Source: Streptomyces sp. 130 (lineage in GTDB: Bacteria > Actinomycetota > Actinomycetes > Streptomycetales > Streptomycetaceae). Taken from it: 64,000 nucleotides of DNA. The stretch lies in the NCBI RefSeq assembly GCF_007096885.1, contig NZ_VJNO01000002.1, forward strand, positions 310,001 through 374,000. The letters are read 5' to 3'. The position numbers were made by a program, and so were the translations under genes. The notes beneath the pieces were generated by a model. The model was not told the DNA's origin and did no database searches. It saw only the letters and a program-made list of their open reading frames with translations. Of this stretch, positions 9,444 to 41,082 are shown one piece after another. The stretch's first letter is position 1, and every line of letters begins with the position of its first letter.

Positions 9444-9718
9444 GGCAGAAATGATCCCGCATCTCCGGCCGCGGCGGGGGCCAAGTGACGTGCTCGTCGC
9501 GCTCGGTGCCCGAGCGCAGCTCAGGGCGCACGGGTGCACGCGGAGCGCACGGCCGGACCGCCGATCCGGACGGTGACCCTCCGCAAGTCCCGTACAGCAG
9601 AGTGTGTTGTGGCGGATTCATGACGTTCGTACACCACCCGTTCCCCTACGGAACGGGGGTGCGGGGCCATTACCCTTTCGTTTGGCCCCCTGCCCGACCA
9701 CTCCGGAACGCGAGATTC
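9444..9718. other. Divergent yqgE-murA promoter region
   Basis: A 275-bp divergent spacer that must carry promoters for both genes. A perfect 8-bp hairpin (cccgttcc, loop cctac, ggaacggg) lies at 9637-9657 in what would be the murA leader. A TACCCT hexamer at about 9671 could be a -10 box, but I see no matching -35. The murA ribosome-binding site is weak (ggaacgcgag). Confidence 0.45.
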
Positions 9719-11059
9719 ATGACCGGCACAGACGATGTCCTGCTTGTCCACGGCGGAACCCCGCTGGAGGGCGAGATCCGCGTCCGAGGCGCCAAGAACC
9801 TGGTGCCCAAGGCGATGGTCGCCGCGCTGCTCGGCAGCGGGCCCAGCCGGCTGCGCAACGTGCCCGACATCCGTGACGTACGCGTGGTGCGCGGGCTGCT
9901 CCAGCTGCACGGGGTGACCGTCCGCCCCGGCGAGGAGCCGGGCGAGCTGGTCCTGGACCCCACGCACGTCGAGAGCGCCAACGTCGCCGACATCGACGCC
10001 CACGCGGGCTCCTCGCGCATCCCGATCCTGTTCTGCGGGCCGCTGCTGCACCGCCTGGGCCACGCGTTCATCCCGGGGCTCGGCGGCTGCGACATCGGCG
10101 GCCGGCCGATCGACTTCCACTTCGACGTGCTGCGCCGGTTCGGCGCGACGATCGAGAAGCGGGCGGACGGGCAGTACCTGGAGGCCCCGCAGCGGCTGCG
10201 CGGCACCAAGATCCGGCTGCCGTACCCCTCGGTGGGCTCCACCGAGCAGGTGCTGCTGACCGCGGTGCTCGCCGAGGGCGTCACGGAGCTGTCCAACGCG
10301 GCCGTGGAGCCGGAGATCGAGGACCTGATCTGCGTCCTGCAGAAGATGGGCGCGATCATCTCGATGGACACCGACCGGACCATCCGGATCACCGGTGTGG
10401 ACCGCCTCGACGGCTACACCCACCGCGCCATCCCGGACCGCCTGGAGGCCGCGTCCTGGGCGTCCGCCGCGCTGGCGACCGAGGGGAACATCTACGTCCG
10501 GGGCGCCCAGCAGCGCTCGATGATGACGTTCCTGAACACCTACCGCAAGGTGGGCGGCGCCTTCGAGATCGACGACGAGGGCATCCGCTTCTGGCACCCG
10601 GGCGGCGCGCTCAACGCCATCGCGCTGGAGACGGACGTGCACCCCGGATTCCAGACGGACTGGCAGCAGCCGCTGGTGGTCGCGCTGACGCAGGCCGCGG
10701 GCCTGTCCATCGTCCACGAGACGGTGTACGAGTCCCGGCTCGGCTTCACCTCCGCGCTCAACCAGATGGGCGCGCACATCCAGCTCTACCGGGAGTGCCT
10801 GGGCGGCTCGGACTGCCGCTTCGGGCAGCGCAACTTCCTGCACTCCGCGGTCGTGTCGGGCCCCACGAAGCTCCAGGGCGCGGACCTGGTCATCCCGGAC
10901 CTGCGCGGCGGCTTCTCGTACCTGATCGCCGCTCTGGCGGCCCAGGGCACCTCCCGGGTGCACGGCATCGACCTGATCAACCGGGGCTACGAGAACTTCA
11001 TGGACAAGCTGGAGAAGCTGGGCGCGAAGGTGGAGCTGCCGGGCGGCTCGCTGGTCTGA
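9719..11059 (+). CDS. murA: UDP-N-acetylglucosamine 1-carboxyvinyltransferase
   Basis: A 446-residue cytoplasmic enzyme catalysing the first committed step of peptidoglycan synthesis, transfer of enolpyruvate from PEP to UDP-GlcNAc. Landmarks are RVRGAKNLVPKAMVAALLG at the N-terminus, the substrate-binding GSTEQVL region near residue 180, and a C-terminal GIDLINRGYENFMDKLEKLG segment. The active-site loop GGCDIGGRP carries the nucleophilic/PEP-reactive Cys (Cys124), not the Asp found in mycobacterial MurA. The length is about 25 residues above E. coli MurA. The start is ATG 9719; longer upstream frames have no ribosome-binding site. It converges on hupA through a shared terminator. Confidence 0.93.
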   Translation: MTGTDDVLLVHGGTPLEGEIRVRGAKNLVPKAMVAALLGSGPSRLRNVPDIRDVRVVRGLLQLHGVTVRPGEEPGELVLDPTHVESANVADIDAHAGSSRIPILFCGPLLHRLGHAFIPGLGGCDIGGRPIDFHFDVLRRFGATIEKRADGQYLEAPQRLRGTKIRLPYPSVGSTEQVLLTAVLAEGVTELSNAAVEPEIEDLICVLQKMGAIISMDTDRTIRITGVDRLDGYTHRAIPDRLEAASWASAALATEGNIYVRGAQQRSMMTFLNTYRKVGGAFEIDDEGIRFWHPGGALNAIALETDVHPGFQTDWQQPLVVALTQAAGLSIVHETVYESRLGFTSALNQMGAHIQLYRECLGGSDCRFGQRNFLHSAVVSGPTKLQGADLVIPDLRGGFSYLIAALAAQGTSRVHGIDLINRGYENFMDKLEKLGAKVELPGGSLV

Positions 11060-11083
11060 GCGGCCGCTGGAGGGCCGAATGCC

Positions 11084-11121
11084 GAAGGGCGGCCACCCCG
11101 GGTGCGGGGTGGCCGCCCTTC
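11084..11121. terminator. Bidirectional terminator between murA and hupA
   Basis: A perfect 16-bp stem (gaagggcggccacccc with ggggtggccgcccttc) and 6-nt loop, between the convergent stop codons at 11059 and 11138. It can serve both strands. Confidence 0.9.
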
Positions 11122-11137
11122 GTCGTGCCCAGGGGTC

Positions 11138-11419
11138 TTACTTGCCCTTGGCGGCTTCCTTGAGCTTGGAGCCCGCGGAGACCTTCACGCTGTAGCCGGC
11201 CGGGATGTTGATCGGGTCGCCGGTCTGCGGGTTACGAGCGGTGCGAGCGGCACGGTGGGTGCGCTCGAAGGTCAGGAAACCGGGGATGGTGACCTTCTCG
11301 TCGCCCTTGGCGACGACCTCACCGACGGTCTCGGCGAGAGCGGCCAGCACGGCGTCGGCGTCCTTGCGGGTCACCTCGGCACGGTCGGCCAGGGCGGCCA
11401 CCAGCTCACTGCGGTTCAT
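11138..11419 (-). CDS. hupA: DNA-binding protein HU
   Basis: A 93-residue histone-like nucleoid protein that bends DNA as a dimer. It has the full HU fold: MNRSELVAALADRAEVTRKDADAV at the N-terminus (in pieces), a helical dimer core, the GDEKVTIPGFLTFE strand, the DNA-binding arm with ARTARNPQTGDPINIP, and the KVSAGSKLKE end. It lacks the long Lys/Ala-rich tail of the second Streptomyces HU paralogue (HupS), so it is the short HupA type. A GGGAG ribosome-binding site precedes ATG 11419. Confidence 0.95.
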   Translation of the reverse strand: MNRSELVAALADRAEVTRKDADAVLAALAETVGEVVAKGDEKVTIPGFLTFERTHRAARTARNPQTGDPINIPAGYSVKVSAGSKLKEAAKGK

Positions 11420-11772
11420 TTTGTTACTCCCGTGTTCTTCTTGCCTGTGAGGCGTGAGATCGAAGCCGATGCTGCCAGGGCCCTCGGACAGTCCCCTAAG
11501 CCGGGTCCGCCCTTGAGAGGGTCCGGTAGACCTCGCGCCCTGTGGGGTCTCCCCTGGACGTAGTCCTTGAGGAAGCATCCTGCCCCCACCTGCGGCGGGA
11601 AAGCCAATCCGGCACCCTCCGGGAGCCGCGCGAACAGCACCACCGCCTCGTCGTGGTGACGTCCCGTCGACTACCCCAGAGCCGTCCGCGAGGGGTGCGG
11701 GGCTCTGCGGGACGCGTCGCCCGCCCACCCTAAAGGGGCGTTTGGGGCGCCGCGACCCGCGACGCGCCGTAG
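11420..11772. other. hupA upstream region with structured leader and malic-enzyme terminator
   Basis: About 350 bp between the malic-enzyme stop and hupA. It should contain the hupA promoter, but no confident hexamers are seen. A possible malic-enzyme terminator lies at 11677-11707. The 240 bp nearest hupA can form several stems on the minus strand. One is an imperfect hairpin at about 11520-11560, where GTCC-AGGGGAGACC pairs with GGTCT-CCGGAC. The codon pattern of the open frame ending at the hupA ATG is not coding-like. Confidence 0.4.
11677..11707 (-). terminator. Possible terminator after the malic enzyme gene
   Basis: An outer 7-bp stem (cagagcc/ggctctg) with inner ccgc/gcgg pairing, 66 bp past the malic-enzyme stop on the minus strand. 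It is weaker than the other terminators in the window. Confidence 0.45.
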
Positions 11773-28939: not shown

Positions 28940-29584
28940 TCACGCGGCCGTGCGGTTGCCCATCAGGCGCGGCAGCACCCGGAAGCCGATGCCGCCGGCG
29001 ATCATCGTCGCGGCGCCGGCCAGCAGGAACGCCGTCTCGCCCGCTCCGGTCTCGGCGAGCTCGTCCTTGCCCTTGCCCTGCTCGACGGGCTGGTTGCCGA
29101 CCGAGTCCGTGTCGGTGTGGCCGCCGCCACCGCCCGAGACCCCGATCTGGCCGACGCCACTGCCCTGGTCCCCGCTGTCGCTCGGCCCGTTGCCCGGGTC
29201 CGCGGACCTGGTCGGGCCCTTGGTGGGCGTGGCCGAGGGCTTCGCGGGCGTCGAGGGCGGGTCCTCCGGCTCCTCCGGGTCCGTGGGCCCGGTGGGCGGC
29301 TCGCTCGGCTGCGCCGGGCCGGTCGGCGGGGTGGAAGGGTGCGCGGGGGTGGCCGGCGGACCGGACGGCTCGCAGCGCGGGTCGAGCGGGCTGCACGGGT
29401 CACCGTCCTCGCCCGGCTCCCCGTCCCCCGGCTCGGCGGTGGTCCGCGCGCCGATCTCCACGCCGGCGACATCGACGCCGATGCCCACGGCCTGGGCCGC
29501 GCCCGCGGCGGTCAGCGAGGCGCCGGCCGCGATCACCGCGCCCGCCGCCGTCCGTGCGAGGCGTACGCGCGTCTTCTTCGTCAT
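28940..29584 (-). CDS. Sortase-anchored surface protein (LAETG motif)
   Basis: A 214-residue secreted protein. A signal peptide (MTKKTRVRLARTAAGAVIAA, cleavage after AAGAAQA) opens it. A low-complexity stalk rich in Pro, Ser, Thr, Asp and Glu spans residues 50-130, followed by a Gly/Asp segment. The C-terminal sorting signal is LAETG, then a hydrophobic helix, then R-L-M-G-N-R. LAxTG is the type recognised by class E sortases of Streptomyces, as used for chaplins. Two Cys in DPCSPLDPRCEP could form a loop. There is no catalytic domain, so the role is probably structural or a wall spacer. Confidence 0.85.
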   Translation of the reverse strand: MTKKTRVRLARTAAGAVIAAGASLTAAGAAQAVGIGVDVAGVEIGARTTAEPGDGEPGEDGDPCSPLDPRCEPSGPPATPAHPSTPPTGPAQPSEPPTGPTDPEEPEDPPSTPAKPSATPTKGPTRSADPGNGPSDSGDQGSGVGQIGVSGGGGGHTDTDSVGNQPVEQGKGKDELAETGAGETAFLLAGAATMIAGGIGFRVLPRLMGNRTAA

Positions 29585-30885: not shown

Positions 30886-32127
30886 CTACGGGGCCGCCGG
30901 GGCCGAGTTCCCGGTCTCCTGGGGGCCCGGGTCCGCGCCGTCGCCGCTCAGGGCGAGCCAGCCGGCCGCGCCGATCCCGGCCACCAGCACCAGGGCCGCG
31001 GCCCCCAGCGTCAGGCGGCGCTTGCGGACGGCCGCCGACTTGTTGCGGGCCGAGCCGGGGCGGGGCCGGCCGGGGGCGCGCGGGGCGCGGGCGGTGCCCC
31101 GGGGGCCGCCGGACAGCTCGTCGGGGGCCGGGACGCGCATGCTCGTGTGGGTGTCGCGGTTGGAGTCCGGGGTGGAGCCGGGCACCAGCGGGACCGCGCC
31201 GCGCTTGCGCGGCTCCTCGCCGGCCGGCGTGTACTGCTGCTCGTCGTAGCCCTGCGGGGCCTCCGGCTCCTCGTCCGGCTCGTCCACCTCCAGGGGCGGG
31301 ATGCCGGCCAGGTGCGGCAGCTGCTCGCGCAGCCGGGCGGCCAGCTCCGAGGCGCGCAGCCGGGAGGCGGGGGCCTTGGCGAGGCACTGGACGAGCAGCC
31401 GCCACAGCTCGTCGGGGATGCCGGGGAGCGGGACCACGGTCTCGGTGACATGGCGGCGCAGGACGGCGCCGGGGTGGCCGCCGCCGAAGGGCGTGAAGCC
31501 GGCGAGGAGCTCGTACAGCACCGTGGCCAGGGCGTAGATGTCCACGGCGGCGCGCGGCGGCAGCCCCTCGACGATCTCGGGGGCCAGGTAGTCCGGGGTG
31601 CCGATGATTTTGGTGGTGCGGGTCCGGCGCGGGGTGTCGATGAGCTTGGCGACGCCGAAGTCGGTGAGCAGCGCGGGGTGGGCGTTGCCGGGACCGAGCG
31701 GCCCCTCCATGTCCAGCAGGATGTTCTCGGGCTTGACGTCGCGGTGGACGATCCCGGCGGCGTGCGCGGCGGCGAGGCCGTCGGCGACGTCCGCGACGAC
31801 GGAGACGGCCGCCTCGGGGGCCAGCCGGCGTTCGCGGTCGAGCCGGGTGCGCAGGTCGGTGCCCCGGACCAGGTCCATGACGAGGGCGAGGTCGTTGCCG
31901 TCGACCACGAGGTCGCGGACGGCGACGACGTGCGGGTGGTCGAGTCCGAGCAGCGCGGTGCGCTCCTGGACGAACCGGCCGACGAGCTCCTGGTCGGACG
32001 CCAGGTCCTCGCGGAGCAGTTTGATGGCCACGGGGCCCTCGGGGCCTTCCCCGAGCCACACCGTGCCGGCGCTGCCGCGCCCCAGTATCTGGTGGGCGGT
32101 GTACCGGCTGCCGATTTTCCGTGCCAA
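30886..32127 (-). CDS. pkaB: Membrane Ser/Thr protein kinase
   Basis: A 413-residue Hanks-type kinase. The kinase domain (residues 1-265) has the Gly loop LGRGSAGTVW, the ATP-binding Lys in VAIKLLRE, catalytic HRDVKPEN, DFG in LLTDFGVAK, and GTPDYLAPE. An acidic then basic linker follows. One TM helix lies near residues 370-390 (LTLGAAALVLVAGIGAAGWL), with a short outer tail. There are no PASTA repeats. The start is TTG 32127 with GGGAG 6 nt upstream. Length and position agree with PkaB of S. coelicolor as I recall it. The substrate is unknown; the adjacent FHA protein is a natural candidate. Confidence 0.9.
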   Translation of the reverse strand: MARKIGSRYTAHQILGRGSAGTVWLGEGPEGPVAIKLLREDLASDQELVGRFVQERTALLGLDHPHVVAVRDLVVDGNDLALVMDLVRGTDLRTRLDRERRLAPEAAVSVVADVADGLAAAHAAGIVHRDVKPENILLDMEGPLGPGNAHPALLTDFGVAKLIDTPRRTRTTKIIGTPDYLAPEIVEGLPPRAAVDIYALATVLYELLAGFTPFGGGHPGAVLRRHVTETVVPLPGIPDELWRLLVQCLAKAPASRLRASELAARLREQLPHLAGIPPLEVDEPDEEPEAPQGYDEQQYTPAGEEPRKRGAVPLVPGSTPDSNRDTHTSMRVPAPDELSGGPRGTARAPRAPGRPRPGSARNKSAAVRKRRLTLGAAALVLVAGIGAAGWLALSGDGADPGPQETGNSAPAAP

Positions 32128-32302: not shown

Positions 32303-33952
<1,650 letters not shown>

Positions 33953-34421
33953 GTCATGCGCTCCCTGCTGGTCGTGGTGGGTCGATCCCCCGGGCACCCC
34001 CGGAGTTTCCGGCCCACTCTAGAGGCTGTACGGGGGAGACCGGCCGGGTCCGCGAGGTGACTTCACCGGTCCGTGGGCCCCAGACGCGCGCTCGCCGCTC
34101 GCGGGCGGGCGCGCTCCGCTCCCGTACGGAAGGGTCCCGGGGGAAGACGTCCGCCCGGGCCTGATGGTTGCCGCGGCCGCAGACCGGGAAACCGGTCATG
34201 CCGCACTTTTGGGGCCACTGCAGACGTTTCAAGATCACTTACTGATGACCGCCGGGCGTGTTGTCAGTGGCAGGTGCGAGGATGCCTGGAGCACGCCTGC
34301 GCGGTCGGGAGCCTCGCGGTGCGTGACGATCCTGTACCGGACGACGCGTCCGTGCCGGGTGGGGGGAATCACAGGGCGTTTCCCCGGCCGGTGCCGCGCG
34401 CAGAAGGGACCGCTGACGGCG
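33953..34421. other. Divergent region between pkaA and the FHA gene
   Basis: About 470 bp holding the promoters of pkaA (-) and of the FHA-domain gene (+). A lower-GC patch at 34200-34265 (around ttttggggccactgcag and caagatcacttactgatg) is the likeliest promoter zone. I cannot identify a -35/-10 pair with confidence. Open frames through it lack ribosome-binding sites. Confidence 0.4.
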
Positions 34422-37400
34422 ATGCAGATCCGGCTGACCGTCCTCGCGCCGCCCAGCGGCCAGACCCCGGCGCGCGCCTGCGATGTGCTGGTCACCGCCC
34501 CCGCGGGGACGGCGCTGGCCTCCGTCGCGTCGGGCCTGGCCATGTCCGTCGCCGGCCCCGACGGCTCCCTGGGCAGCGGGGCGGTGGTCCTCTTCGCGGG
34601 CCGGGAGCGGCTGGACGCGCAGCGCTGCGCCCTCGGCGAGCCGCCCCTGATCGACGGCGCGGTGCTGTCGCTCCAGGTCCCGGGCGAGGACGAGACCGCG
34701 GACGAAGCGGTCCCCGCCCAGCTCCAGGTGGTCGCCGGCCCCGACGCGGGCGGGGTCCATCTGCTGCACGGCGGCTCGGTCCGCGTCGGCCGCTCGGCCG
34801 AGGCCGACGTGCCGCTGGACGACCCCGACGTCTCCCGGCTGCACTGCGAGGTGACGGTGTCCGAGGACGGCCGGGTCTCCGTGGCCGACCTGGGCTCCAC
34901 CAACGGCACCTCGCTGGACGGGGCCGAGGTCCGCGACCGTCCGGTCCGGCTCGCCCCGGGGGCGCTGCTGCGGCTCGGCGAGTCGACGCTCCGGCTCGCC
35001 TCCGGCACGCGTCCGCCGGTGCTGCCGACGACGCCGGACGGCGAGGGCCATCTCCGGGTGGCCCGGGTCCCGGCCCCGCCGGCCGCCCCCGCGCCCGAGG
35101 CCGCCCGGCCGGACCACGCCCGGCCCGCGCCCGACGAGCCGGAGGCCGGGGCCCGGCCCGGGTCCTCCGCCGGGCACCCGGGCCGCTTCCCGGAGCAGGA
35201 GGCGCCCCGGCGCGGCGGCATAGGGGCCTGGGCCCGCCGGCTCAAGGGCGCCCGCACCGAGACGGTGCCCCCGAGCGCCCCCGCCGAGCCGGCCCCCGCC
35301 GACCCGGGCGCCTTCGCCTCGCCGCCCGCCGCCCCCGAGGGCACCTGGCCCGATCCGGCCGCCGTGCTGCTGACCGCGCTCGGCCCGGGCCCCCGGCTGT
35401 GGGAGCGCGACCCCGCGCACCCGGAGGCGCTGGTGGTCCGGCTGGGCACCACCGACCGGGCCGACCTGCCCGCCGTGCCGGTGACCGTGAGCCTGCGGGA
35501 GGCCGGTTCGCTGGGGCTCGCCGGTCCCCGGGAGCGGCTGTCCGGGCTCGCCCGGTCCGCCGTGGCCCAGCTGGCCGCGCTGCACTCCCCCGCCGACCTG
35601 GAGATCGTGCTGATCAGCACGGACCGGGCGCGGTCCGCGGAGGAGCGGCGGCGCGAGTGGGCCTGGCTGGGCTGGCTGCCCCATTTGCGCCCGATGCACG
35701 GCCAGGACTGCCGGCTGCTCCTCGCGTACGACCGCGACCAGGCGCTCGCCCGCACCGCCGAGCTGGTCCGCCGGCTGGACGACGGACCGCTCGGCCCCGG
35801 CTGGGCGAGCCAGGACCCGGCGACGGTCACCGAGGCCGCCCGCGGCCACGAAGGCCCGTTCACGGTGGTGATCCTCGACGGCGACCCCGGCGCGGCGGTC
35901 CTCCGTGAGAACACCGCCCGGCTGGCCGCGGCCGGTGCGGCGGCGGGCGTCCATCTGATCTGCCTGGCCGAGACGCCGGCCGCGACGCCCACCTCACCGG
36001 TCGCCGCGACGTACGAGGCCGCGTGCCACGCGTCGATCGCCTTCCGCGAGTGCGGGGCGGTCGGGATGCTCAGCGGTGATGTGGCGACGGCCCTGCGGCT
36101 GCTGCGCACGGCGGGCGGCCGGGCGGCGGGCCACGGCACGGTGGCCTCGGTGGACGCGGTGTCGGCGCACTGGGCCGAGCGGTTCGCCCGCGCGCTGGCC
36201 CCCCTCCGCGCGGAGGGCTCGGCCGCGCTCCCGGGCCGCCAGGTGCCGGTGGCCCTCCCCCCGTCCGCCCGCCTCCTGGACGAACTGGGCCTGGCCCGGG
36301 CCACCCCGGCCTCCCTGATGGCCCGCTGGGCCTCGACGGCGGACGACCACCCGACGCCCCGCACGGGCGCCGGACCCGGGGCGTGCCCGGGGACGGACGC
36401 CCCGGGCCACGCGGCGGCGGCGCAGGCGCCGGACTCGGGCCGCACGGCGTACCCGGGGACGGGCGACTCGGGGCGCACGGCGTACCCCGACACCACCGCG
36501 ACGGGCTCCGGCCGCATCCCATACCCCCGCACCAACACGGGCGACTCGGGCCGCACGGCGGCGCAGGCGCCGGACCCGGGACGCACCGCGTACCCCGGGG
36601 GCGGCACGGACGGCTCGGGCCGCACCCCGTACCCCGACACCACCACGACGGGCTCAGGCCGCACCCCGTACCCCCGCACCGACACGGGCGACTCGGGCCG
36701 CACGGCGGCTCAGGCGCCGGACCCGGGACGCACGGCATACCCCGGCGGCACGGGCGGCTCGGGCCGCACCCCGTACCCCGACACCACCACGTCAGGCTCC
36801 GGCCGCGTCCCGTACCCCCGCGCCGGCACCGGCGGCTCCGGCCGCACCCCGTACCCCGACGCCACCGCGACGGGCTCCGGCCGCGCTGCCCGGGTCGGCG
36901 GGCCCCGGCAGGCCGGGGGGCCTCAGGTCGCCGCGCGTGGTGCCGGCACGGCCGGGGGGACGCGGACCGCCGTGCGGCCGGGCGTCCGCGCCGGGCGGCC
37001 CGTCGTCGTGCTCGGGGCCGGGCCGCACGGGCCGGTGAGCGTCGATCTCGCGGACGAGGGGCCGCACCTGCTCATCGAGGGGCCCGGCGGCAGCGGGCGG
37101 ACCGAGCTGCTGCGGGCCGTCGCGGCGTCGCTGGCGGCGGCGGCCCGGCCGGACCGGCTGGGCATCGTGCTGGTCGACGGGGCCGGCGGCGAACGCGGCG
37201 AGTCGCTGCGGCCCTGCACGGAGCTGCCGCACGCGTTCACGCACCTGGTGGCCTCGGACCCGGTCCGGATGCGGGAGTTCGCCCAGGCGCTGGGCGGCGA
37301 GGTGAAGCGGCGGGCCGAACTGCTCGGCGAGCTCGACTTCGCCGAGTGGCACAGCCGTCACGAGGACGGGCCCGCGACCGTGCCGGTCCCCGAGCAGCGC

Positions 37401-38000
37401 GGCGACGTGGAGGCCCCCCTCAGCGGCACCCTGCGCCTGCGCCCGGGGGCGGGCCGCCCCGTGGACCCGGGACCCTCGCCGCTGCCCCGGCTGGTGGTGC
37501 TCGTGGACGACTACGACGCGCTCATAGCCCCGGCGCTCGGCAGCCCGGGCCGGCCGGCGGCCGGTTCGGTGGTGCGGGCGCTGGAGGCGGTGGCCCGGGA
37601 CGGCGGCCGGCTGGGCATCCACCTGGTCGCCGCCTCGGCCCGCCCCGACCGCACCGAGGACACGGAGCTGGCCCGCGGCGCGCGGCTGCGCATCGTGCTC
37701 GATCCGCCCGCGGTCCCGCCCTCGCCGGACGAACCGGCGCCGGGCCGGGGGCGGCTGGGGCACCCGGACGGGCGGGTGACGCCGTTCCAGGGCGGCCGGG
37801 TGACCGGCCGCATCCCGCGTACGGCGACGCTGCGGCCGACGGTCGTCCCGCTGGAGTGGGAGCGGATGGGCGACCCGCCCACCCGCCGCCCGGTCCGCGA
37901 GCTGGGCAACGGGCCGACGGACCTCGCGCTGCTCGCCAGCGCCCTGGAACGGGCGGCGCGTTCGGTGAACGCGCAACCCCTCGCGCCCCTGTCCACCTGA
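34422..38000 (+). CDS. FHA-domain protein with FtsK/SpoIIIE-like ATPase region and repetitive linker
   Basis: A 1192-residue cytoplasmic-looking protein with no TM helix. The N-terminal 85 residues are a ubiquitin-like/EssC-type segment (MQIRLTVLAPPSGQTPARAC). An FHA domain (VRVGRSAEADVPLDDPDVSR, LGSTNGTSLDG) follows at about 115-190. A Pro/Ala linker and an FtsK-like alpha/beta domain follow (DLEIVLISTDRAR, WLGWLPHLRP). Residues 670-825 are tandem SGRTPYPDT-like repeats. A last nucleotide-binding domain has GPGGSGRTEL (residues 887-896), where Arg893 replaces the Walker Lys, and a VVLVDDYDAL Walker B-like strand. It resembles half of an ESX/FtsK ATPase and is probably inactive or weak. FHA binds phospho-Thr, so it may be a target of the adjacent kinases. 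Confidence 0.75.
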   Translation: MQIRLTVLAPPSGQTPARACDVLVTAPAGTALASVASGLAMSVAGPDGSLGSGAVVLFAGRERLDAQRCALGEPPLIDGAVLSLQVPGEDETADEAVPAQLQVVAGPDAGGVHLLHGGSVRVGRSAEADVPLDDPDVSRLHCEVTVSEDGRVSVADLGSTNGTSLDGAEVRDRPVRLAPGALLRLGESTLRLASGTRPPVLPTTPDGEGHLRVARVPAPPAAPAPEAARPDHARPAPDEPEAGARPGSSAGHPGRFPEQEAPRRGGIGAWARRLKGARTETVPPSAPAEPAPADPGAFASPPAAPEGTWPDPAAVLLTALGPGPRLWERDPAHPEALVVRLGTTDRADLPAVPVTVSLREAGSLGLAGPRERLSGLARSAVAQLAALHSPADLEIVLISTDRARSAEERRREWAWLGWLPHLRPMHGQDCRLLLAYDRDQALARTAELVRRLDDGPLGPGWASQDPATVTEAARGHEGPFTVVILDGDPGAAVLRENTARLAAAGAAAGVHLICLAETPAATPTSPVAATYEAACHASIAFRECGAVGMLSGDVATALRLLRTAGGRAAGHGTVASVDAVSAHWAERFARALAPLRAEGSAALPGRQVPVALPPSARLLDELGLARATPASLMARWASTADDHPTPRTGAGPGACPGTDAPGHAAAAQAPDSGRTAYPGTGDSGRTAYPDTTATGSGRIPYPRTNTGDSGRTAAQAPDPGRTAYPGGGTDGSGRTPYPDTTTTGSGRTPYPRTDTGDSGRTAAQAPDPGRTAYPGGTGGSGRTPYPDTTTSGSGRVPYPRAGTGGSGRTPYPDATATGSGRAARVGGPRQAGGPQVAARGAGTAGGTRTAVRPGVRAGRPVVVLGAGPHGPVSVDLADEGPHLLIEGPGGSGRTELLRAVAASLAAAARPDRLGIVLVDGAGGERGESLRPCTELPHAFTHLVASDPVRMREFAQALGGEVKRRAELLGELDFAEWHSRHEDGPATVPVPEQRGDVEAPLSGTLRLRPGAGRPVDPGPSPLPRLVVLVDDYDALIAPALGSPGRPAAGSVVRALEAVARDGGRLGIHLVAASARPDRTEDTELARGARLRIVLDPPAVPPSPDEPAPGRGRLGHPDGRVTPFQGGRVTGRIPRTATLRPTVVPLEWERMGDPPTRRPVRELGNGPTDLALLASALERAARSVNAQPLAPLST
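36428..36890 (+). repeat. In-frame repeats encoding SGRTPYP-type units
   Basis: About twelve 10-13 residue units of the form (D/G)SGR(T/I/V)(P/A)YP plus a Thr/Asp or Gly-rich spacer. A longer period is visible: the stretch starting gcgactcgggccgcacggcg occurs at 36541 and again at 36688, 147 bp (49 residues) apart. Repeats stay in frame and carry many Thr and Ser, so they may be phosphorylation sites on a flexible linker. Confidence 0.85.
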
Positions 38001-39660: not shown

Positions 39661-41082
39661 ATGACGACAGCGGCAGCGGGGGGCGCCGACGAGGCGCTCC
39701 CCGCCGACAGGCAACGGTCCGGCGGGCCCCGCGTGCCCGCCCCCAGGAAGGCCGCCCCGGCGGGCTCCCCCGGCGCTCCCGGCGGCGGCCGGAGCGTGAC
39801 CGGCACCCGCAAGGCGATCGCGGCGCTCTTCCTGCTGCCGGCGCTGGTGCTGCTCGGGGCACTGGTGGTCTACCCGATCGTGTACTCCGTCTACCGGTCG
39901 TTCTTCGACCAGGCGGGTACCGGCTTCGCCGGCATCGACAACTACAAGACGCTGTTCACGGACGACACCATCCGTACGGCGGTGAAGAACAACGCGATCT
40001 GGGTCGTCTTCGCGCCGACGATCTCCACCGCGCTCGGGCTGATCTTCGCGGTGCTGACCGAGCGCATCCGCTGGGGCACGGCCTTCAAGCTGGTCGTCTT
40101 CATGCCGATGGCGATCTCCATGCTGGCGGCGGGCATCATCTTCCGGCTGGTGTACGACGCGGCGCCGGAGCGCGGGGTCGCCAACGCGGTGTGGGTGGGC
40201 GTGCACGACACGTTCGCCGAGTCCTCGGGCTTCCCGAAGGCGCACCCGCTGCCCGCGGCCCCGCTGAAGGCGGCGGGCGGCGGGGCCTTCGTGACGAAGA
40301 CGGCCGTGCACGCCGGGCAGCCGGTCCGGCTCCCCCTGGTCGGGGTACTCCCGGCGAAGATGCCGGGCGACGCGAAACCGGCGAAGGCCCCGGCGGCGGC
40401 CGGGGACGGCGGGATCACCGGCACCGCGTGGCTCGACTTCACCAAGGGCGGCGGCGGCAAACCCAATGTGATCGACGCCGAGGAGCTCGGGCTCAAGGGC
40501 CTGAAGGTGGAGGCCGTCAGGAACGGCGAGGTGGTCGCGACCGCCAAGGCGGGTGCGGACGGCACGTTCACGCTGCCCGCCTCCGCGGACGGCGCCGAAC
40601 TGCGGCTCCCGGCCACCAACTTCCGGGAGCCGTACAACGGCGTGAACTGGCTCGGCCCGACGCTCGTGACGCCCGGGATCATCGGGAGCTACGTGTGGAT
40701 GTGGGCGGGCTTCGCGATGGTGCTGATCGCGGCCGGCCTGGCCGGGCTGCCGCGTGAACTCCTCGAAGCGGCCCGGGTGGACGGGGCCAACGAGTGGCAG
40801 GTGTTCCGCCGGATCACCGTGCCGATGCTCGCCCCGGTCCTCGCGGTGGTGCTGGTCACGCTGATGATCAACGTGCTGAAGATCTTCGACCTGGTGTTCA
40901 TCATCGCGCCCGGCTCGACCCAGGACGACGCCAACGTGCTGGCGTTCCAGCTGTACCGGTCCTCGTTCGGCACGGACGCGGACCTCGGGGTCGGCAGCGC
41001 CATCGCCGTACTCCTGCTGCTGCTGGTGGTCCCGGTGATGCTCTTCAACATCAGGCGGATACGGAAGGAGGGGCGCCGATGA
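39661..41082 (+). CDS. Sugar ABC permease, MalF type, with inserted extracytoplasmic domain
   Basis: A 473-residue permease. Its transmembrane core is ordinary: TM1 ALFLLPALVLLGALVVYPIV near residue 55, FAPTISTALGLIFAVLTERI, MPMAISMLAAGIIF, then after a gap YVWMWAGFAMVLIAAGLAG, and the EAA loop ELLEAARVDGANEWQVFRRI. The loop between two helices, normally about 30 residues, is expanded to about 155 (residues 170-325). The insert ends in a beta-rich module: GITGTAWLDF, an LGLKGLKVEAVRNGEVV strand pair, and GADGTFTLPA. That module resembles SdrD B-like/carboxypeptidase-regulatory-like domains and should face outside. It may contact the sugar, the binding protein or the wall. The N-terminal 50 residues are Pro/Gly-rich. 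Confidence 0.88.
   Translation: MTTAAAGGADEALPADRQRSGGPRVPAPRKAAPAGSPGAPGGGRSVTGTRKAIAALFLLPALVLLGALVVYPIVYSVYRSFFDQAGTGFAGIDNYKTLFTDDTIRTAVKNNAIWVVFAPTISTALGLIFAVLTERIRWGTAFKLVVFMPMAISMLAAGIIFRLVYDAAPERGVANAVWVGVHDTFAESSGFPKAHPLPAAPLKAAGGGAFVTKTAVHAGQPVRLPLVGVLPAKMPGDAKPAKAPAAAGDGGITGTAWLDFTKGGGGKPNVIDAEELGLKGLKVEAVRNGEVVATAKAGADGTFTLPASADGAELRLPATNFREPYNGVNWLGPTLVTPGIIGSYVWMWAGFAMVLIAAGLAGLPRELLEAARVDGANEWQVFRRITVPMLAPVLAVVLVTLMINVLKIFDLVFIIAPGSTQDDANVLAFQLYRSSFGTDADLGVGSAIAVLLLLLVVPVMLFNIRRIRKEGRR

What the first reader, a model, noticed from the sequence alone, without database searches (positions are those of the whole stretch)
34422..38000. FHA/FtsK-like protein with an arginine-substituted Walker A and Thr-rich repeats, opposite two Ser/Thr kinases
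Three features meet: a phosphothreonine-reading FHA domain, an ATPase-like domain whose Walker Lys is Arg893, and a linker of about twelve SGRT(P/A)YP units rich in Thr and Ser. It is divergent from pkaA and pkaB. I suggest a kinase-regulated scaffold derived from an ESX/FtsK-type ATPase, perhaps with the repeats phosphorylated and bound by FHA in cis or trans. I do not know of a description of such a system.
Basis: partly seen in the sequence, partly recalled or inferred. Interest (0 to 1): 0.6.

Follow-up and report, generated by a model that had tools for sequence, protein, structure and literature searches.

The report
Kinase-paired scaffold from secretion motor
Streptomyces and its relatives carry, next to a pair of signalling kinases linked to cell-wall stress, a protein rebuilt from part of a protein-secretion motor whose ATP-gripping lysine has become an arginine several times, which suggests the motor was turned into a phosphorylation-reading scaffold.

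Summary
By position it is S. coelicolor SCO2975, which the searched papers list only as a hypothetical sigmaE target. It is a cut-down EccC/EssC: possible ubiquitin-like start, intact FHA, no membrane helix, EccC "DUF", then a D1-type domain; no D2/D3 and no WXG100 neighbour. It is found in 101 of 101 genomes of a Streptomycetaceae sample and 58 of 61 of a genus sample. The three features have separate histories. FHA pocket residues are invariant (115/115). K-to-R changed about five times; in the main Streptomyces clade (59 leaves) Arg shows 0 amino-acid and 16 synonymous changes; Walker B is DD throughout. The repeats are one clade-specific insertion (54 of 152 linkers), so they are not the core mechanism. 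Arg P-loops are usual in EccC-type D2/D3, and S. aureus EssC D2 (natural Arg) serves assembly. Most likely: a cytosolic, phospho-threonine-recruited, ATP-binding but hydrolysis-poor assembly platform for PkaA/PkaB. Architecture and linkage are shown; biochemistry is inferred. New variant of a known kind.

The parts
34422..38000 (+). gene of the FHA-DUF-D1 scaffold (SCO2975 position), 1,192 aa, stop included
34422..34691 (+). aa 1-90, possible YukD/EccD-type ubiquitin-like domain (MQIRLTVL...DGAVLSL)
   Evidence: conserved in a 43-row alignment; YukD is the Pfam family hit by most members, 7 of 43, best E 0.012, below cut-off, but DUF6861 hits 6 of 43 with a better best E of 0.0021; hhalign with two EccD Ubl domains prob 57%, E 1e-4; predicted beta-beta-alpha-beta-beta-beta at modest confidence. 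Weak.
34728..35000 (+). FHA domain, aa 103-193, phospho-Thr pocket intact
   Evidence: closest solved folds GarA/OdhI, Z about 13
35328..36215 (+). EccC-type DUF domain (degenerate ATPase fold), aa 303-598
36339..36995 (+). linker between DUF and D1, aa 640-858, insertion of one Streptomyces clade
36435..36857 (+). twelve SGRT(P/A)YP-type units, aa 672-812
36996..37997 (+). EccC D1-derived FtsK/SpoIIIE domain, aa 859-1192
37080..37103 (+). Walker A GPGGSGRT, aa 887-894; Arg893 codon 37098-37100
37506..37511 (+). Walker B D1029-D1030 (DD in place of DE)
37785..37955 (+). strongly conserved C-terminal tail, aa 1122-1178 (GRIPRTAT..WERMGDPP.RRPVRELGNGPTDLALL)
32303..33997 (-). pkaA, Ser/Thr kinase with a C-terminal hydrophobic segment (start codon uncertain)
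30886..32127 (-). pkaB, tail-anchored Ser/Thr kinase (start codon uncertain)
   Evidence: SCO2973 shown tail-anchored in PMC3087755 (passages)
34145..34171 (-). sigmaE-type promoter reading towards pkaA (GCAAC-N17-CGTCT)
   Evidence: SCO2974 promoter listed in PMC6767563

Best explanation
A cytosolic scaffold made from part of a type VII secretion ATPase. SHOWN: an intact FHA domain, the EccC DUF pseudo-ATPase domain and one D1-derived domain with DD Walker B and, here, an Arg P-loop; no transmembrane segment by hydropathy, no D2 or D3; kept beside the PkaA/PkaB kinase pair across the family; a conserved sigmaE-type promoter in front of pkaA. WEAK: a ubiquitin-like start. INFERRED: under envelope stress PkaA/PkaB autophosphorylate on activation-loop threonines, the FHA domain docks on phospho-threonine of the kinases or of a shared client, and the D1 domain, which can hold ATP but hydrolyses it poorly or not at all, drives ATP-dependent ring or oligomer formation that clusters kinases and clients at the membrane. 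The repeat linker only lengthens, and perhaps tunes, the tether in one clade.
For: A match to the last 347 residues in 101 of 101 Streptomycetaceae genomes, 17 of 17 genera; the three weakest (G061, G077, G087) were opened and are FHA-bearing orthologs. Both kinases opposite in 109 of 115 loci; in four of the six misses the fetched stretch is short or cut. FHA residues G123 R124 S138 R139 H141 S159 T160 N161 G162 T163 invariant in 115 of 115. PkaA loop T191 in 114 of 114, T193 in 109 of 114. Walker A: R 115, K 41 of 156 readable rows; Walker B DD in 155 of 155 readable rows. Main Streptomyces clade, 59 leaves: Arg893 0 amino-acid, 16 synonymous changes. 12 full-length EccC-type relatives: D1 is the best-matching domain in 12 of 12; P-loop K in D1 12 of 12, R in D2 11 of 12, R in D3 11 of 12. 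S. aureus EssC D2 has natural R1020; [quoted passage not shown] sigmaE-type site towards pkaA in 95 of 114 intergenic stretches against 1.3% of shuffles.
Against: No binding, phosphorylation or ATPase data. In a genus sample 3 of 61 genomes lacked it: two without any match (G017, G032, both in many contigs) and one with only an EccC-like match (G050, 82% complete). 119 of 339 columns also show no amino-acid change in the main clade, so Arg893 is conserved but not exceptional. Lys is very rare in this gene (2 AAG, 0 AAA, against 121 Arg codons), so base composition favours K-to-R. 41 rows keep Lys, among them four loci of the same genus code (L161, L163, L165, L166) and the Streptomyces record L088, so Arg is not essential. 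No sigmaE-type site towards the scaffold gene (0 of 114), so co-induction is not shown by pattern. Oligomerisation is inferred from EssC/EccC.
Confidence: 0.48

Rival explanations
1. Nucleotide-free pseudo-ATPase scaffold: both DUF and D1 are dead folds, and only FHA, the N-terminal domain and the conserved tail matter as docking surfaces.
For: Arg for Lys in Walker A and DD for DE; the EccC5 DUF does not bind nucleotide (PMC11154593, passages).
Against: G887, G890, S891, G892 and T894 of the P-loop stay largely conserved, and only K or R occurs at 893 (156 of 156 readable rows), which suggests that phosphate is still held.
Confidence: 0.22
2. Accessory regulator of the genome's own ESX/T7SS, mixing with EccC.
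For: DUF, D1 and perhaps the N-terminal domain are T7SS parts; the genome has EccC, EccD and WXG100 genes elsewhere; 98 of 101 family genomes have an EccD match. Two of the three genomes without an EccD match, G098 and G067, still hold long EccC-type genes.
Against: No ESX gene at the locus; the kinases, not ESX genes, are the constant neighbours. The three genomes without an EccD match keep the scaffold, but EccD may have been missed there, so this counts little.
Confidence: 0.16
3. An active ATPase or translocase: Arg supports slow hydrolysis, and the protein moves DNA or protein.
For: Fold close to FtsK and EccC (Z 23-25); 41 of 156 rows keep Lys.
Against: Walker B has DD in 155 of 155 readable rows, while D1 of EccC-type relatives has DE in the 11 of 12 where my pattern found it; no membrane helix by hydropathy; single domain without D2/D3.
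Confidence: 0.1
4. One reading: PkaA/PkaB phosphorylate the SGRT repeats and the FHA domain binds them in cis or trans as the main switch.
For: GRT is strongly enriched in the 54 long linkers (216 against a shuffle mean of 14.8, maximum 25) and Thr follows GR in 216 of 271 GR pairs, so the motif is not composition alone.
Against: 98 of 152 linkers are 51 aa or shorter; one gain on the tree; tandem DNA copying can by itself keep the motif. 9 of the 54 long linkers have no GRTxYP unit at all. FHA pocket and kinases are older than the repeats.
Confidence: 0.05

Closest known systems
EccC / EssC (T7SS core ATPase), e.g. T. curvata EccC 4nh0, M. tuberculosis EccC5 DUF 8rin, G. thermodenitrificans EssC
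   Same: DUF followed by D1-type FtsK domain, in that order; fold and sequence clearly related; FHA at the N-terminus as in EssC.
   Different: No transmembrane helices by hydropathy, no D2 or D3, Arg P-loop and DD Walker B in D1, no WXG100 gene beside it.
TsdC-TsdD of T7SSd (Actinomycetota; PMC11217815, passages)
   Same: FHA with the phospho-Thr motif on an FtsK-type ATPase next to a membrane Ser/Thr kinase; the authors suggest kinase control.
   Different: TsdC is a membrane-bound ATPase with four predicted NTPase domains, encoded with a WXG100 protein; here only DUF and D1 remain, and two kinases sit divergently.
GarA / OdhI / FhaA-FhaB (FHA proteins of actinobacteria; kinase docking recalled, PknB-GarA complex 6i2p seen)
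   Same: Closest FHA domains by sequence and fold; intact phospho-Thr pocket; kinase context.
   Different: Those lack an ATPase-derived body (recalled).
S. aureus EssC D2 (natural Arg1020 P-loop; PMC9436818, passages)
   Same: Arg at the Walker A lysine place; role in complex assembly.
   Different: Here it is the D1-type domain that carries Arg, gained independently of D2.

Membership tests
EccC/EssC T7SS core ATPase | membrane anchor (TM helices) before the DUF | tested here: not met
   Highest 19-residue hydropathy 1.55 in the window protein, in the N-terminal domain and not before the DUF; highest of 153 ortholog rows 2.07, also in the N-terminal domain; own-genome EccC controls 2.35 and 2.62. 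Hydropathy only.
EccC/EssC T7SS core ATPase | DUF domain | tested here: met
   EccC5 DUF Z 21.1, 234 residues, rmsd 3.0; profile hit 8rin E 1.5e-19
EccC/EssC T7SS core ATPase | catalytic D1 with GxxGxGK[ST] and hhhhDE | tested here: not met
   GPGGSGRT and VDDYD in the window protein; DD in 155 of 155 readable rows
EccC/EssC T7SS core ATPase | D2 and D3 ATPase domains | tested here: not met
   Protein ends after D1 and its tail; NCBIfam T7SS_EccC_b hits only aa 871-970
EccC/EssC T7SS core ATPase | WXG100 partner gene at the locus | tested here: not met
   Two PF06013 matches in the genome, both on contig C77, none in the window
EccC/EssC T7SS core ATPase | NCBIfam EccCa equivalog cut-off | tested here: not met
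   142.8 bits against 509.15
Phospho-Thr-binding FHA protein | conserved G-R, S-R-x-H, S-T-N-G-T pocket residues | tested here: met
   115 of 115
Phospho-Thr-binding FHA protein | binds a phospho-Thr peptide | not testable with these tools
   needs a binding assay
YukD/EccD ubiquitin-like domain | profile match and beta-grasp fold | tested here: inconclusive
   Pfam YukD below cut-off in 7 of 43 members, best 0.012; DUF6861 in 6 of 43, best 0.0021; hhalign prob 57%; best PDB profile hit E 0.22, not a ubiquitin fold by name
FtsK/SpoIIIE DNA translocase | full motor with K/DE active site and membrane part | tested here: not met
   R/DD active site, no TM by hydropathy; NCBIfam FtsK model 13.4 bits against cut-off 1566.
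FtsK/SpoIIIE DNA translocase | gamma DNA-reading domain | not tested
   not looked for separately

The most novel reading that the evidence does not exclude
A secretion motor ring was freed from the membrane, stripped to DUF+D1 and turned into a T7SS-independent, phospho-threonine-gated assembly platform for a PknA/PknB-like kinase pair in envelope stress, with the motor's P-loop lysine replaced by arginine independently up to five times because the platform needs ATP holding and not hydrolysis.
Probability: 0.32. Interest if true: 0.75.

Novelty: new variant of a known kind. Interest (0 to 1): 0.56.

Why it matters
If right, it shows how a secretion ATPase is recycled into a signalling scaffold, gives the PkaA/PkaB kinases of Streptomyces a ready partner (in the searched library the scaffold appears only as a hypothetical sigmaE target), and offers a natural evolutionary experiment: the same Lys-to-Arg change repeated in a P-loop, testable by comparing Lys- and Arg-bearing orthologs of one family. 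It also gives a testable case for the idea, raised for T7SSd, that Ser/Thr kinases steer EccC-like machines through FHA domains.

Tried and rejected
Repeats as ancient regulatory core: rejected, one clade-specific gain. Repeat motif as a genome-wide docking signal: a DNA pattern for GRT(P/A)YP gave 10 matches in the own genome, 8 in this gene; the reversed control gave 1. Arg893 as a random decay product: disfavoured, 0 amino-acid against 16 synonymous changes in 59 leaves, but base composition remains a cause of the direction. sigmaE site: my first pattern was mis-written at the -35 box and gave 4 of 114; the corrected one, taken from the table in PMC6767563, gave 95 of 114; neither found sites towards the scaffold gene. 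The SCO2975 site listed in that paper departs from the consensus and I could not place it in the window. Solved-structure hits for the N-terminal domain alone: none convincing. Pfam and NCBIfam give the N-terminus of the window protein no name. T7SS independence from missing EccD: weakened on recheck, because two of the three genomes without an EccD match hold EccC-type genes. Among 197 genomes of the class, the matches outside this gene family that I opened (12 loci, one of them a Streptomyces EccC-type gene) were all long EccC-type genes; the match list was cut, so absence of the short form outside Streptomycetaceae is not proven. Tree: quick method with LG+G4; L140/L145 and L160/L164/L161 were flagged as long branches that meet, so three of the five K/R changes (Streptomyces main clade, genus code g3, genus code g5) are firm and two are not.

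Rows dropped or kept: L089 (the window itself) was dropped, and one ortholog is unreadable at the P-loop; for the tree I also left out every even-numbered locus among L010-L086, two repeat fetches and rows with a short DUF or D1 part (108 rows kept). Two genes fetched twice (L120/L143, L125/L135) stay in the counts, and L021 and L095 are identical on the tree, so counts are of loci and not of independent species. Four of the 40 loci have the protein split over two or three frames (L132, L148, L162, L165), not examined further. Structure alignments held part of what I had: 65 of the 156 D1 orthologs, 56 for the N-terminal half, 42 of 111 N-terminal stretches.
Full report
WHAT IS THERE. The window lies in G000, contig C56; its nearest orthologs in named records are all Streptomyces or a [Kitasatospora] label, so I take it as Streptomyces. 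The gene runs from ATG 34422 to the stop at 38000 (1,192 aa). Pfam finds FHA (2.5e-17) and FtsK_SpoIIIE (3.9e-16); NCBIfam finds type VII secretion EccCa (TIGR03924, 1.6e-41, but 142.8 bits against a cut-off of 509.15), best over aa 348-641. Arg893 stands at the Walker A lysine. Twelve SGRT(P/A)YP-type units lie at aa 672-812 and form a 147-bp tandem repeat.

DOMAINS. Aa 303-598 are the EccC "DUF" domain: the AlphaFold model (mean pLDDT 72 for aa 1-645, low over 197-306) matches the EccC5 DUF crystal at Z 21.1 over 234 residues, and the family profile finds it by sequence (8rin, 1.5e-19). Aa 859-1192: the model of aa 847-1192 (mean pLDDT 79.5) matches EssC/EccC ATPases (Z 26.5 to 24.5) and FtsK (Z 24.5); the top structural rows are EssC D2, but Z differences under 1-2 do not separate D1 from D2. 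By sequence this domain is closest to D1 in all 12 long relatives opened (68.7-154.5 bits against 21.7-53.3 for the next domain). The FHA domain is nearest to GarA and OdhI. Aa 1-90 may be a YukD/EccD-like ubiquitin domain, on weak evidence. Hydropathy shows no membrane helix. So the protein looks like an EccC/EssC that lost its membrane anchor, D2 and D3.

CONSERVATION. All 101 genomes of a Streptomycetaceae sample, in 17 genera, have a match to the last 347 residues at E 1e-15 or better; the three weakest (G061, G077, G087) were fetched and carry the FHA domain and a divergent kinase (L127, L128, L157). In a sample of 61 genomes of the same genus 58 have an ortholog-like match; G017 and G032 have none and G050 only an EccC-like one. 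All 40 loci fetched from 17 genera hold a pkaA-like kinase on the opposite strand. Of 115 loci with the FHA domain, 109 hold both kinases; L065, L139, L140, L145 and L157 show only pkaA at my 60% identity limit and L123 neither. L065, L123, L139 and L157 are short or cut stretches; L140 and L145 are not, so pkaB may be absent or diverged there. The ten FHA pocket residues are invariant in 115 of 115. The PkaA activation loop keeps T191 in 114 of 114 and T193 in 109 of 114. In the 104 of 109 PkaB loops that I could read, the commonest forms are DFGVAKLIDTPRRTKATKIIGTPDYLAPE (31) and DFGIARLVDAPRRTRATRIIGTPDYLAPE (18).

THE P-LOOP. In 157 aligned D1 domains the 893 place is R in 115, K in 41 and unreadable in 1; Walker B is DD in all 155 readable rows. 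D1 of the 12 long relatives has K in 12 of 12 and DE in the 11 where my pattern found Walker B; the two EccC genes of this genome have K and DE in D1. So K was probably the start, DE-to-DD came early, and K-to-R followed. On a tree of 108 rows built without the K/R column, K/R changes five times and the long linker once. Three origins are well placed (Streptomyces main clade of 59 rows, SH-aLRT 99; genus code g3, 100; genus code g5, 100); two sit on long branches. R is not universal in the genus: L161, L163, L165 and L166 (same genus code) and the named Streptomyces record L088 have K. Among the 59 main-clade leaves Arg893 shows 0 amino-acid changes and 16 synonymous changes (CGC, CGT, CGG), against a column median of 2 and mean of 4.4 amino-acid changes; 119 of 339 columns are equally unchanged. 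The gene has 2 Lys codons against 121 Arg codons, so base composition pushes K to R; what needs explaining is that a catalytic Lys was free to go, while EccC in the same genome keeps it.

PRECEDENT. In the 12 long relatives D2 has R in 11 and D3 has R in 11. T7SS authors write the motif as G[K/R][S/T] and D[E/D]; S. [quoted passage not shown] neither supported secretion (PMC9436818, passages). D2/D3 are described as degenerate with poor or undetectable catalysis and proposed regulatory roles (PMC11154593, passages); G. thermodenitrificans EssC D2 binds ATP (with a Lys P-loop; PMC4925161, passages). The D1 here has thus moved towards the D2/D3 type, from motor to ATP-holding assembly part. This is the main ground for my mechanism and it is inference by family.

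THE LINKER. Linkers over 60 aa occur in 54 of 152 orthologs (86-290 aa); the other 98 are at most 51 aa, all but two of them under 30. The 28 long ones on the tree form one clade with one gain; the rest were not placed. GRT is far more frequent than in shuffled linkers (216 against a mean of 14.8), and Thr follows GR in 216 of 271 cases, Ser in 15; 9 of the 54 have no GRTxYP unit. That is non-random, but tandem copying alone can do it. The motif is nearly confined to this gene in the genome (8 of 10 DNA matches). It may tune the tether or add phosphosites in this clade, but it cannot be what the family does.

REGULATION. In S. coelicolor sco2974 (pkaA) and sco2975 are both among the 91 putative sigmaE targets of a table, and pkaA is among 21 predicted to be conserved in at least 9 of 19 genomes (PMC6767563, passages). 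A sigmaE-type site towards pkaA is in 95 of 114 intergenic stretches (73 of 74 for loci below L127 plus the window, 22 of 40 for L127-L166), against 1.3% of shuffles (shuffled in blocks of two bases); in the window it lies at 34145-34171. None of 114 has one towards the scaffold gene. PkaB is tail-anchored with its kinase inside (PMC3087755, passages), and PkaI interacted with PkaA (PMC4416010, passages).

LINK TO T7SS. The genome has EccC, EccD and WXG100 genes elsewhere, no WXG100 match in the window. EccD was found in 98 of 101 family genomes; the three without a match (G098, G153, G067, each listed as 100% complete) keep the scaffold. On recheck G098 and G067 do hold long EccC-type genes, and not every candidate was scored, so this says little about independence.

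LITERATURE. Searches for pkaA+pkaB+Streptomyces+FHA (none), Streptomyces+FHA domain+FtsK+EccC (one listing, a B. subtilis paper), SCO2973/4/5 (three papers, SCO2975 in one), Streptomyces+FHA domain+FtsK SpoIIIE (none), pkaA/pkaB/S. coelicolor/kinase (39 papers, 20 listed, mostly on fungi) and type VII secretion+Streptomyces+EccC+FHA (two listings) found no description of this protein beyond the table entry; only open-licence papers are held. The nearest idea in print that I saw is TsdC/TsdD of T7SSd (PMC11217815, passages).

VERDICT. Real, conserved and undescribed as far as I could search; a new variant of a known kind (EccC/EssC-derived ATPase fold with FHA beside kinases), not a member of EccC. 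Mechanism confidence 0.48.

Noticed in passing
39661-41082 (+): Sugar-type ABC permease (named by eye) with a large Gly/Ala-rich inserted segment between its first and later hydrophobic parts; looks unusual.
   Followed up: no
28940-29584 (-): Small secreted-looking protein with a C-terminal LAETG motif, hydrophobic stretch and basic tail, as in class E sortase substrates (motif recalled), on the same strand as the kinases and an FtsE-like ATPase gene (named by eye).
   Followed up: no
L173:4194-8825 (+) and 9532-11745 (-): In another Streptomyces genome a full-length EccC-type ATPase has a Ser/Thr kinase gene next door (36.8% to PkaA); possibly a T7SSd-like locus in Streptomyces.
   Followed up: partly
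L167-L178, D2 and D3 domains: Arg at the Walker A lysine place is the rule in D2 (11 of 12) and D3 (11 of 12) of the EccC-type ATPases opened.
   Followed up: partly
37785-37955 (+): The tail after D1 is one of the most conserved parts of the family and got no family name; it may be the real docking surface.
   Followed up: no
32527-32830 (-): PkaA carries a Gln/Pro-rich stretch before its C-terminal hydrophobic segment.
   Followed up: no
34422-38000 (+): Only 2 Lys codons in 1,193 codons against 121 Arg codons; the protein is almost lysine-free.
   Followed up: no
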